From contig NZ_LQPT01000038.1 of NCBI RefSeq assembly GCF_002102355.1, positions 1 to 50,339 of the forward strand: 50,339 nt of DNA, written 5' to 3'. The translations under genes were made by a program, and so were the position numbers. The number at the start of each line of letters is the position of its first letter. The stretch's first letter is position 1. Source of the stretch: Mycobacterium sherrisii. GTDB lineage: Bacteria > Actinomycetota > Actinomycetes > Mycobacteriales > Mycobacteriaceae. Below the pieces are notes generated by a model, which was given only the letters and a program-made list of their open reading frames with translations, made no database searches and was not told the origin of the DNA. Shown here piece by piece: positions 38,883-41,597 of the stretch.

Positions 38883-40625
38883 TCAGTCCAGCCGTATCGA
38901 GTTGATCGTCACCGGCGAGGCCGGTAGGCCGCTCTCGCGGTTGCCGGCCACACCGGCCGTGCCGATCTTGTCGAGGACCGCCAGGCCCGCCTCGTCGATG
39001 GTCCCGAGCACCGTGTTGACCGGTTGGGTCTCGGTGTCCTGGAAGAACAGCACGAACTGGCTGCCGTTGGTGTTGGGGTCCGACGTCGCCATCGCCACAG
39101 TGCCGCGCGGGTAGACGACGGTCGCGCGCAGCGCGGGATCGCCCGGCGGGTACTGATTGGTGGGGTATTCGTCGGCGAATTCGTAGCCCGGGCCGCCGCC
39201 GCCGTCCTTGTCGGGGCCACCGCACAGTAGCGCCGCGACGTCGGCCGTCTTGGTCAGCCGGGCGCACGAGGTGTCGTCGAAGAACTGTTGTCGCGCCAGG
39301 CTGGTGAAGCTGTTCACCGTGCAGGGCGACTTGGCGTTGTCCAGCTGAAGGCCGATGTCGCCGCTGTTGGTCGAGATGGTCGTGCTGACCACGGGCGGGT
39401 AGGTGGACACCCGACCGGGCGGCGGCGGGGTGACCGGCTTCGGGGAGGCATCCGGGGAGTCGGCGGCCACCGCCGGATATTGGCAGTTGGCGCCCAGGTC
39501 CGGTGGCGGGGAGAACGCCGGCAACGGTGGTGCGCTCGCGCCGTTCGGGGTGGCGGCCGTCGTCGGCCCGAACGGGCCGCCCATCGCGGGGCCCAGTTTG
39601 GGCGTCCGGGGATGCGGCGCGGTGGTGGTGGCGGCGTTGTCGGTCGCCGAGTCGTTGTGGGTCACCAGCGCAATCACCAAGATCGTCACCGTCGTGAGGG
39701 TGAAGATCGACGCGGCCACGATGCCGACGATCAGCCGCCGGTTCGACGAGCGCGGCGGGGCCTGCGGGTGCGGCGCGAAATGCGGCAGGCCGGGCGTCGC
39801 GGTGGTGGGCAACTCGGTGAGCGCGGCCTTGGCGGCCTCGGCGAACGCGATCGCCGACTGGTAGCGGGAGTCGACATCCTTGGCCATGCCCCGGGCGATC
39901 ACGTCGTCGAGGGCCGGCGGCACGCCGGGCGCGGTCAGCGAGGCGCGCGGCGGCGGGGTGTTCAGATGCGCGTTGAGTTGTTCTTCGAAGGTGTCGCCGG
40001 GGTACGGCAGGTGTCCGGTCAGGCATTCGTATAGCACGCAGGCCAGCGCGTAGATGTCCGCGCGGTGGTCGGTCATGCCCCGGAATCGCTCCGGGGCCAT
40101 ATAGGCCATCGTGCCCATGGTGTGGCCGCTCTGGGTCAGCGCGGTGTCGGCGGCGGTGCGGGCGAGGCCGAAGTCGATCAGGTAGACGAACTCGCGGTTG
40201 GTCACCAGGATGTTGGACGGCTTGATGTCGCGGTGGATCAGCCCGACCTCGTGGGCCGTATCCAGCGCTGCCGCAACCTGTTCGATCACCGCGACGGCCC
40301 GCCGCGGGTCCAGCCGTCCGCCATGATCGCGGGTGTACTGCAGCAGGTCGCGGCCCTCGATCAGGCGCATGTCGACATACAGCCGGCCGTCGATCTCGCC
40401 GTAGCTGTGAATCGGCACCATGTGCGGGTCGTTCAGGCTTGCCGCGATGCGTGCCTCGCGGCGGAACCGGTGCTGAAATTCGCTGTCCTCGGCCAGATGT
40501 GCGGGCAGCACCTTCAGCGCGACGATCCGGTCGGTGCTGGTGTCGTAGGCGCGATAGACCTGTCCCATGCCGCCGCGGCCCAACACCTCACGCAGCTGGT
40601 ACTGCCCGAATGACTCCTCCACCAC
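38883..40625 (-). CDS. Receptor-like Ser/Thr protein kinase fused to a cyclophilin domain
   Basis: The 580-residue protein has four parts. Residues 8-270 are a complete Hanks-type kinase: glycine loop GRGGMGQVY, K38 (VALKVL), HRDIKPSN (D133), DFG (D151), activation loop with T164/T169/T172, and APE (177-179). A basic linker leads to one transmembrane helix (298-322). Residues 323-366 are Pro/Thr-rich. Residues 367-580 are homologous over their full length to residues 91-301 of the adjacent PpiB, including four aligned cysteines (C381, C435, C454, C468). The domain should lie outside the membrane. Several cyclophilin active-site positions are altered (L467, V525, N537), so it may bind ligand rather than isomerise proline. 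It lies between relA and ppiB, which are adjacent in M. tuberculosis. Confidence 0.93.
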   Translation of the reverse strand: MVEESFGQYQLREVLGRGGMGQVYRAYDTSTDRIVALKVLPAHLAEDSEFQHRFRREARIAASLNDPHMVPIHSYGEIDGRLYVDMRLIEGRDLLQYTRDHGGRLDPRRAVAVIEQVAAALDTAHEVGLIHRDIKPSNILVTNREFVYLIDFGLARTAADTALTQSGHTMGTMAYMAPERFRGMTDHRADIYALACVLYECLTGHLPYPGDTFEEQLNAHLNTPPPRASLTAPGVPPALDDVIARGMAKDVDSRYQSAIAFAEAAKAALTELPTTATPGLPHFAPHPQAPPRSSNRRLIVGIVAASIFTLTTVTILVIALVTHNDSATDNAATTTAPHPRTPKLGPAMGGPFGPTTAATPNGASAPPLPAFSPPPDLGANCQYPAVAADSPDASPKPVTPPPPGRVSTYPPVVSTTISTNSGDIGLQLDNAKSPCTVNSFTSLARQQFFDDTSCARLTKTADVAALLCGGPDKDGGGGPGYEFADEYPTNQYPPGDPALRATVVYPRGTVAMATSDPNTNGSQFVLFFQDTETQPVNTVLGTIDEAGLAVLDKIGTAGVAGNRESGLPASPVTINSIRLD

Positions 40626-40691
40626 GCCCTGACCTTAAGGTGTCGGCCCCCGCGCCGCCGCGTTCTCGTCAATCCGCGGTGCTCGTGTTGT

Positions 40692-41597
40692 CTAGTCCAG
40701 ACGTATCGACTTGATCGTGACTTCGCTGACCGGTGCGCCGTCATCGCCGCCGCCGACCACACCGGCCTTGGCGATCTTGTCCAGCACCGCCAGCCCGTCG
40801 TCTTGAATCTTGCCGAAGACGGTGTATTGCGGCGGCAACTGAGAATCCTTGTAGACCATGAAGAATTGGCTGCCGTTGGTGCCGGGGCCGGCGTTGGCCA
40901 TCGCCAGCGTGCCGCGCGGATACACAACCGGTTCCTGCGCCTTGGGATCGTTCGGCGGGTACTGGTCGGTCGGGTACTCGTTGTCGAACTTGTAGCCGGG
41001 ACCGCCCGTGCCGTCGCCCTTAGGATCTCCGCACTGCAGGACGCCCAACGTCTCCGAGGTGGTCAGCCGGTGACATTTGGTGTCGTCGAAGTACTTCTGC
41101 CCGACCAGGCTGGCGAAACTGTTGACCGTGCAAGGAGATTCGTTGTTGGCCAGCATCAGGCCCAGGTTGCCCTGGCTGCTCGACATGCTCACGCTCACGG
41201 TAGCCGGTTCGGTGGGCACCTTGCCGGTGCGCGGCGGCTTGACCGGCTTGGCGGCCGGCTCCTGCGGCGTCGCGGGGTACTGGCAGTTGGCGCCGAGGGT
41301 GGCCGAAGGCTTGAACGCCGGCAGCGGCGGAGCCGGCGGAACCTGACCGATGGGGGCCGCTGGTGACGTCGTGCTCGCCGGCGGGGGGTTGCCCGGCGTC
41401 GCGGCGGCCGAGTCGGTCTTGTGCCGGTTGTTGGAGTTGATCACGGCGATCGTCACGACGGCCGCCACGGCGACGACCGCGACCGTGCCCCCGGCGATGA
41501 GCAGCAGGCGCCGGCGTCGGGCTTGCTTGGCGCGGCGCTCCAGCTGCCGTTCGAGTTTGCGCTTGGCGTTCGCACGTCGCTGTTCGTTGGTCGGCAC
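40692..41597 (-). CDS. ppiB: Membrane-anchored peptidyl-prolyl cis-trans isomerase (cyclophilin)
   Basis: The 301-residue protein has a strongly basic N-terminus (residues 5-30), one transmembrane helix (31-53), a Pro/Ala linker and an extracytoplasmic cyclophilin domain. Cyclophilin motifs are CHRL (R177), LQCGDP (Q188) and NGSQFFMVY (Q244, F246). Four cysteines (C105, C156, C175, C189) could form two disulfides. It should help fold exported proteins. The start is GTG 41597. It is transcribed toward the kinase-cyclophilin gene, whose GTG lies 66 bases after its stop. Confidence 0.94.
   Translation of the reverse strand: MPTNEQRRANAKRKLERQLERRAKQARRRRLLLIAGGTVAVVAVAAVVTIAVINSNNRHKTDSAAATPGNPPPASTTSPAAPIGQVPPAPPLPAFKPSATLGANCQYPATPQEPAAKPVKPPRTGKVPTEPATVSVSMSSSQGNLGLMLANNESPCTVNSFASLVGQKYFDDTKCHRLTTSETLGVLQCGDPKGDGTGGPGYKFDNEYPTDQYPPNDPKAQEPVVYPRGTLAMANAGPGTNGSQFFMVYKDSQLPPQYTVFGKIQDDGLAVLDKIAKAGVVGGGDDGAPVSEVTIKSIRLD

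What the first reader, a model, noticed from the sequence alone, without database searches (positions are those of the whole stretch)
38883..41597. Transmembrane Ser/Thr kinase whose outside domain is a copy of the neighbouring cyclophilin PpiB
The 580-residue protein joins a complete Hanks kinase (K38, D133, D151, APE) to one membrane helix and an extracytoplasmic domain that aligns along its full length with residues 91-301 of PpiB, encoded 66 bases upstream on the same strand. Four cysteines, the LGANCQYPA segment and the C-terminal SIRLD are shared. This implies tandem duplication of ppiB followed by fusion to a kinase, between relA and ppiB, which are neighbours in M. tuberculosis. A receptor kinase sensing unfolded exported proteins, prolyl peptides or a cyclophilin ligand would be a new signalling design. 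Its neighbours (secDF, relA, ppiB) fit an export-stress theme.
Basis: partly seen in the sequence, partly recalled or inferred. Interest (0 to 1): 0.87.

Follow-up and report, generated by a model that had tools for sequence, protein, structure and literature searches.

The report
Membrane kinase with borrowed cyclophilin sensor
A mycobacterial membrane protein kinase carries on its outside a domain descended from PpiB, the protein-folding helper encoded next door; the gene is real and found in many related species, the design was first listed in 2005, and what looks new is that such kinases acquired PpiB-type domains more than once and, in one species, part of the export protein SecD.

Summary
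ORF 38883-40625(-) encodes a complete Hanks kinase, one membrane helix and a PpiB-type cyclophilin domain (52% identity over 261 aa), 66 bp downstream of ppiB and abutting convergent relA. It is not an artefact: intact fusions lie beside ppiB in at least 60 of 396 genus genomes, under purifying selection. It is not a new design: Krupa & Srinivasan (2005, PMC1262709, passages) listed kinase+TM+peptidyl-prolyl isomerase in M. avium subsp. paratuberculosis, and PknE carries a DsbA-like foldase domain. Beyond that: (1) window-type ectodomains keep the cyclophilin fold and cysteines but none of 67 keeps the full prolyl pocket, against 131 of 137 PpiBs; (2) cyclophilin was acquired at least three times, once as nearly all of PpiB with its own membrane helix, once by a kinase of another clade; (3) in another genome the kinase in this gap carries a SecD-type ectodomain, with secD nearby. 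Best reading: a receptor kinase reporting the folding or export state of exported proteins. Ligand and activity are untested.

The parts
38883..40625 (-). kinase-cyclophilin fusion gene, 580 aa, GTG start
   Evidence: searches (ORF; Pfam), 59 other genomes with an intact relative beside ppiB
39864..40601 (-). Hanks-type Ser/Thr kinase domain (residues 9-254)
   Evidence: E 1.5e-44; signatures; nearest solved structure PknE 2h34 E 5e-88
39660..39737 (-). single membrane helix (about residues 297-322), arginines on the kinase side
   Evidence: hydropathy; helix 297-322 in the full-length model
38886..39515 (-). extracytoplasmic PpiB-type cyclophilin domain (residues 371-580) with four conserved cysteines and an eroded prolyl pocket
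40692..41597 (-). ppiB, membrane-anchored cyclophilin, 301 aa, 66 bp upstream
36504..38882 (+). relA, convergent; its stop abuts the kinase stop
31207..32934 (+). secD (P1 head domain; a SecD-type domain is the ectodomain of the kinase at this site in genome G371)
32942..34222 (+). secF

Best explanation
A single-pass receptor kinase. Inside: a complete Ser/Thr kinase domain related to the PknE/PknH group. Outside: a PpiB-derived cyclophilin fold that kept its scaffold and cysteines but lost most of the prolyl-isomerase pocket, so it is probably a binder and not an enzyme. Shown: domain order, membership of the ectodomain in the PpiB family, conservation in at least 60 genomes, purifying selection, pocket loss, repeated acquisition of PpiB-type domains and one SecD-type domain at this site. 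Inferred: the ectodomain senses the state of exported proteins or of the folding/export machinery (by binding exported chains, or PpiB itself), which changes kinase pairing and autophosphorylation and passes an envelope folding/export signal to cytosolic substrates. Substrates are unknown.
For: Domains and motifs. Fold model. Intact fusions in at least 60 of 396 genomes, eight with two; in the 59 other genomes a separate ppiB lies in the same stretch in 59 of 59 and relA in 56 of 59. Median dN/dS: kinase 0.126, ectodomain 0.318, PpiB 0.092, over 105 pairs drawn from 22 chosen loci with kinase dN up to 0.10, both copies of tandem pairs included. Pocket counts, window-type ectodomains (n=67) vs stand-alone PpiB (n=137 distinct sequences, second copies included): Q63 11 vs 137, N102 11 vs 131, F113 12 vs 137, Tyr126 3 vs 137, R55 57 vs 137, Q111 65 vs 137; all six together 0 of 67 vs 131 of 137; the four cysteines kept in 58-67 of 67. 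Folding/export ectodomains recur on kinases: PpiB type, at least three acquisitions; SecD type in G371 between ppiB and relA; thioredoxin type on the PknE-like kinase of the same genome (PknE in print). Short same-strand spacing to ppiB: median about 78 bases over 123 kinase copies, duplicate records included. Mtb PpiB prevents aggregation and is oligomeric (PMC4794191, passages) and is described as isomerase and chaperone (PMC12757957, passages).
Against: No kinase activity, ligand, substrate or expression was tested. Related kinases carry non-folding ectodomains (SBP_bac_3: G389; 9 of 10 scanned), and about ten genomes have the kinase at this site with only a short tail, so a folding ligand is not required of this kinase group. 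M. leprae, M. shimoidei and other ppiB-only loci lack it, and several species hold broken copies, so it is dispensable.
Confidence: 0.6

Rival explanations
1. PERK/BiP-like version: the ectodomain binds PpiB itself through an interface inherited from the duplication; when clients occupy PpiB, the kinase is freed and switches on.
For: Same family as the adjacent ppiB and short same-strand spacing; Mtb PpiB is oligomeric in solution (PMC4794191, passages); scaffold conserved while the pocket is not.
Against: No interface or complex was tested; two tandem fused copies with diverged ectodomains in eight genomes fit less easily with one partner.
Confidence: 0.25
2. The ectodomain is an active prolyl isomerase tethered to the membrane; [quoted passage not shown]
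For: Cyclophilin fold; 10 of 11 PpiB-like fusions keep all six pocket residues; the 2005 suggestion.
Against: In the window and most of its clade Q63, N102, F113 and Tyr126 are replaced and variable; none of 67 keeps all six.
Confidence: 0.12
3. The ectodomain is a decaying passenger or a passive cap; the kinase works through its cytosolic part only.
For: Kinases with short tails exist at the same site; ectodomain evolves faster than kinase; several broken copies.
Against: Ectodomain median dN/dS 0.318 is well below 1, cysteines and scaffold positions are kept in nearly all of 67 rows, and similar domains were acquired repeatedly.
Confidence: 0.12
4. Assembly or annotation artefact joining two genes.
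For: None found.
Against: 59 other genomes, several in one contig, show the intact fusion beside ppiB.
Confidence: 0.01

Closest known systems
Kinase + TM + peptidyl-prolyl isomerase protein of M. avium subsp. paratuberculosis (Krupa & Srinivasan 2005, PMC1262709, gi 41407147)
   Same: Same domain order, same genus; passages seen.
   Different: Described there as found only in the M. avium genome; in the passages seen nothing on origin from ppiB, pocket loss or repeated fusion. I did not have that sequence, so same-locus orthology is untested.
PknE (Rv1743), Ser/Thr kinase with DsbA-like ectodomain (PMC3792642, passages)
   Same: Nearest solved kinase (2h34, E 5e-88); one TM; outside domain from an extracytoplasmic foldase.
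   Different: Ectodomain is thioredoxin/DsbA type, not cyclophilin; this genome has a separate PknE-like kinase (56% identical, Thioredoxin_4).
PpiB (Rv2582 in M. tuberculosis)
   Same: Ectodomain homologous to PpiB residues 91-301.
   Different: PpiB has no kinase; 131 of 137 PpiB sequences keep all six pocket residues checked, the window ectodomain two.
PERK/Ire1 and other unfolded-protein sensors (recalled, no call)
   Same: Working analogy only: membrane kinase with a folding-state ectodomain.
   Different: No shared ectodomain ancestry is claimed.

Membership tests
Hanks-type RD Ser/Thr kinase | glycine loop, catalytic Lys, HRD, DFG, APE | tested here: met
   GRGGMG, K38, HRD 131-133, DFG 151-153, APE 177-179; invariant or nearly so in 26 aligned fusions
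Hanks-type RD Ser/Thr kinase | phosphotransfer activity | not testable with these tools
   needs protein
PknE | kinase domain groups with PknE | tested here: not met
   nearest in the PDB, but in the tree the genome's own PknE-like kinase groups with PknH-like kinases (98/81*), not with the window kinase
PknE | DsbA/thioredoxin ectodomain | tested here: not met
   ectodomain is Pro_isomerase
cyclophilin fold | cyclophilin structure | tested here: met
active cyclophilin-type prolyl isomerase | pocket residues R55, Q63, N102, Q111, F113, 126 (CypA numbering, recalled) | tested here: not met
   window ectodomain keeps R55 and Q111, has L63, T102, V113, N126; note that PpiB itself has Tyr at 126
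PpiB orthologue | groups with stand-alone PpiB | tested here: not met
   window-type ectodomains form a separate clade, 100/99*
2005 kinase-TM-PPIase architecture | kinase, one TM, C-terminal Pro_isomerase | tested here: met

The most novel reading that the evidence does not exclude
The gap between ppiB and relA is a site where PknE/PknH-related membrane kinases repeatedly receive ectodomains from the folding and export genes around it: PpiB-type cyclophilin in several lineages (with intact or eroded pocket) and, in one lineage, the SecD P1 domain. Together they would be a family of kinases that read the load on protein export and folding outside the membrane, a bacterial counterpart of PERK/Ire1, with sensors made from copies of the machinery being monitored.
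Probability: 0.35. Interest if true: 0.82.

Novelty: new variant of a known kind. Interest (0 to 1): 0.62.

Why it matters
The signals of most mycobacterial receptor kinases are unknown (recalled). Here the sensor's family is a known foldase encoded next door, and relatives carry intact, eroded or replaced versions, so the ligand question becomes testable by comparing PpiB, fresh fusions and eroded fusions. If true, it links protein export and folding outside the membrane to Ser/Thr phosphorylation in mycobacteria.

Tried and rejected
Artefact and separate translation: rejected on 59 other intact copies. Single origin of all cyclophilin ectodomains: rejected (AU p 1.6e-8); single clade of their kinases, the L191 kinase left out: rejected (p 2.5e-5). 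All these groups were named after the first trees were seen, which weakens the p-values. One origin for window type + G113/G215/G367/G010 type + G187/G340 type is NOT rejected (ectodomain p 0.33; kinase p 0.09), nor with G281 added (ectodomain p 0.32), so I count these as one. Results against my reading: window type with the E2733/ACS4054 type p 0.053 and with L191 p 0.087 on the ectodomain are not below 0.05; the independence of the first rests also on the kinase test (p 0.006) and the junction, of the second on a kinase from another clade. G381 and E2733/ACS4054 may be one event (kinases together 92/35), hence 'at least three'. In one search two kinase tests used groups that left out a nested unfused copy (L146) and the contig-split G010 kinase; they were redone and only one search is used.

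PknE orthology: considered, not supported. Promoter/terminator scan: no promoter, one terminator on the other strand where shuffles give 1.5, nothing concluded. Fusion outside the genus: in 301 family genomes (29 of the genus, 272 others) no listed row outside the genus reached beyond query residue 417 of 580, but the list was cut. Full-length model: pTM 0.48, several stretches under pLDDT 50, used only for the helix. A Foldseek search of the pdb library could not be started.

Rows dropped or doubled: one search read some loci in the wrong orientation and is not used. Searches counted the window kinase and PpiB twice (as locus L119 too); the numbers given are the recount without it. In one search, 98 handles were classified, G073 being a 100-base stub; 'kin_unfused' there (18) mixes ten short-tailed kinases with broken, contig-split, SecD and SBP cases, and 'ppiB_only' (17) includes two contig-split fusions (G062, G038). 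L097_2 (G010) is counted as fused PpiB-like (11 rows) because kinase and cyclophilin lie at two contig ends; the pieces were not joined. Seven 'other' cyclophilin rows were left out.

In print: PMC1262709 is the only paper in which I saw the fusion. Ten answered searches of the held open library (of these 24 and 48 were aimed at PknE, 49 at PpiB, 73 at a SecD kinase) list no title or abstract start that describes it, but I opened passages of only seven papers, and many listed papers unopened. PMC4238996, PMC6917791 and PMC3389728 (passages) say nothing of it in what I saw. Subscription papers are not covered.

Full report

Is it real. A search of 396 genus genomes (own included) with the ectodomain and with the kinase domain led to 98 other genome handles with a fetched stretch (one a stub). 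Of these, 59 hold an intact kinase-cyclophilin ORF, eight of them two in tandem; all 59 have a separate ppiB in the same stretch and 56 also relA. With the window that is at least 60 of 396; the lists were cut, so it is a lower bound. Named carriers include M. triplex, M. montefiorense, M. nebraskense, M. scrofulaceum (strain E3039), M. vulneris, M. colombiense, M. alsense, M. paraense, M. interjectum DSM 44064 and M. terramassiliense. Over 105 pairs (22 chosen loci, kinase dN up to 0.10) the median dN/dS is 0.126 (kinase), 0.318 (ectodomain), 0.092 (PpiB). The linker varies in length but stays in frame in the 26 aligned rows. An artefact or separate translation is therefore very unlikely.

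States of the ppiB-relA gap. ppiB only (M. leprae, M. shimoidei); ppiB plus a second ppiB, no kinase (M. neglectum, M. moriokaense); ppiB plus a short-tailed kinase of about 390 aa (M. asiaticum and others); ppiB plus kinase with PpiB-like ectodomain (Mycobacterium sp. E2733, ACS4054, G381 and others); ppiB plus kinase with diverged ectodomain (window type); two fused kinases; and in G371 ppiB plus a kinase with SecD-type ectodomain. Pieces or broken copies occur in M. lepraemurium, M. genavense, M. palustre and M. interjectum ATCC 51457.

Repeated acquisition. In the careful cyclophilin tree the window-type ectodomains are one clade (12 rows, 100/99*), apart from stand-alone PpiB. The E2733/ACS4054 ectodomains sit inside stand-alone PpiB (with the PpiB of M. 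sp. 4858, 95/83*), the G381 ectodomain beside its own PpiB (98/79, not starred), and the L191 ectodomain (a metagenome-assembled genome) beside its own PpiB (100/99*). All fused ectodomains as one clade: AU p 1.6e-8; window type with G381 0.005, with E2733/ACS4054 0.053, with L191 0.087, with the G113 and G187 types 0.33. On the kinase side, window type with E2733/ACS4054 as one clade: p 0.006; all locus fusions as one clade: p 2.5e-5; the L191 kinase belongs to another kinase clade (100/99*; 42% identity). The groups were named after seeing the trees. The junctions differ: E2733/ACS4054 contain PpiB's own cytoplasmic tail and membrane helix, G381 appears to contain part of that tail and the helix (35% over 108 residues to its PpiB), whereas the window type keeps a helix that by eye is like that of an unfused kinase, L146. 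I conclude at least three acquisitions, merging those not separated by the tests.

Pocket. Using CypA numbering (recalled; consistent with the alignment to 1w74), stand-alone PpiB (137 distinct sequences) keeps R55, Q63, Q111 and F113 in all, N102 in 131, and has Tyr at 126 in all. The 11 PpiB-like fusions keep R55, Q63, N102, Q111 and Tyr126 in 11 and F113 in 10. The 67 window-type ectodomains keep R55 in 57, Q111 in 65, F112 in 67, each cysteine in 58-67, but Q63 in 11, N102 in 11, F113 in 12, Tyr126 in 3. All six together: 131 of 137 PpiB, 10 of 11 PpiB-like fusions, 0 of 67 window type (recount, which held the window twice). The window has L63, T102, V113, N126. So this ectodomain is probably a cyclophilin-fold binder and not an isomerase; that is an inference until assayed.

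SecD. The kinase between ppiB and relA in G371 (68% identical in the kinase domain) has SecDF_P1_head outside (E 1.4e-7; 4.6e-8 alone), 44% over 257 aa to that genome's own SecD, whose gene lies about 6 kb from the kinase, beyond relA. A second SecD-type kinase (G354, E 2.4e-20) lies elsewhere, with no ppiB, relA or separate secDF hit in the 19.5 kb read.

Relation to known kinases. The nearest solved kinase is PknE (E 5e-88; PknB 4.5e-54), yet the genome's own PknE-like kinase (56%, Thioredoxin_4) groups with PknH-like kinases and not with this one. The names PknE-like and PknH-like are mine: the first rests and the PknE papers, the second is recalled from the tail sequence.

Known or new. 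Krupa & Srinivasan 2005 (PMC1262709; passages seen) list 'Kinase + trans-membrane segment + peptidyl-prolyl cis-trans isomerase domain' in M. avium subsp. paratuberculosis and suggest a role in folding; PknE's DsbA-like domain is in print (PMC3792642, passages). So the design is known. I saw no account of the origin in the PpiB family, wide spread, pocket loss, repeated acquisition or a SecD variant in the listings of ten paper searches or the passages I opened; most listed papers were not opened.

Mechanism. Most likely a receptor kinase that reports the folding or export state outside the membrane. PpiB of M. tuberculosis prevents aggregation and is oligomeric (PMC4794191, passages) and is described as isomerase and chaperone (PMC12757957, passages), which makes both direct client binding and PpiB binding plausible. 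Nothing here tests ligand, activity or substrate.

Noticed in passing
L142:2814-4880 and L242 (G371); L239 (G354): Kinases with a SecDF P1 head ectodomain; in G371 the gene sits between ppiB and relA with secF-secD close by.
   Followed up: partly
L191:3378-5615: A metagenome-assembled Mycolicibacterium genome has a 746-aa ORF joining a kinase of another clade (42% identity) to a PpiB-type cyclophilin, followed by a second kinase gene.
   Followed up: partly
L153 (Mycobacterium sp. 4858): ppiB-kinase stretch appears as an inverted repeat with both halves partial; may be an assembly palindrome.
   Followed up: no
L174, L151, L212, L208: Broken or partial fusion genes in M. lepraemurium, M. genavense, M. 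palustre and M. interjectum ATCC 51457.
   Followed up: no
L147, L152, L178, G110, G132, G276, G360: Tandem fused pairs: many second-copy ectodomains form their own clade (99*), while the kinase domains of some pairs group nearer by species; kinase-domain conversion between copies is possible.
   Followed up: no
L206, L218, L187, L193: Tandem ppiB duplicates without a kinase at the same locus in several other mycobacteria.
   Followed up: partly
L223-L241: Kinases of unnamed genus genomes 62-68% identical to this one; 17 of 19 have a periplasmic amino-acid-binding-like ectodomain (9 by Pfam; 8 by eye).
   Followed up: partly
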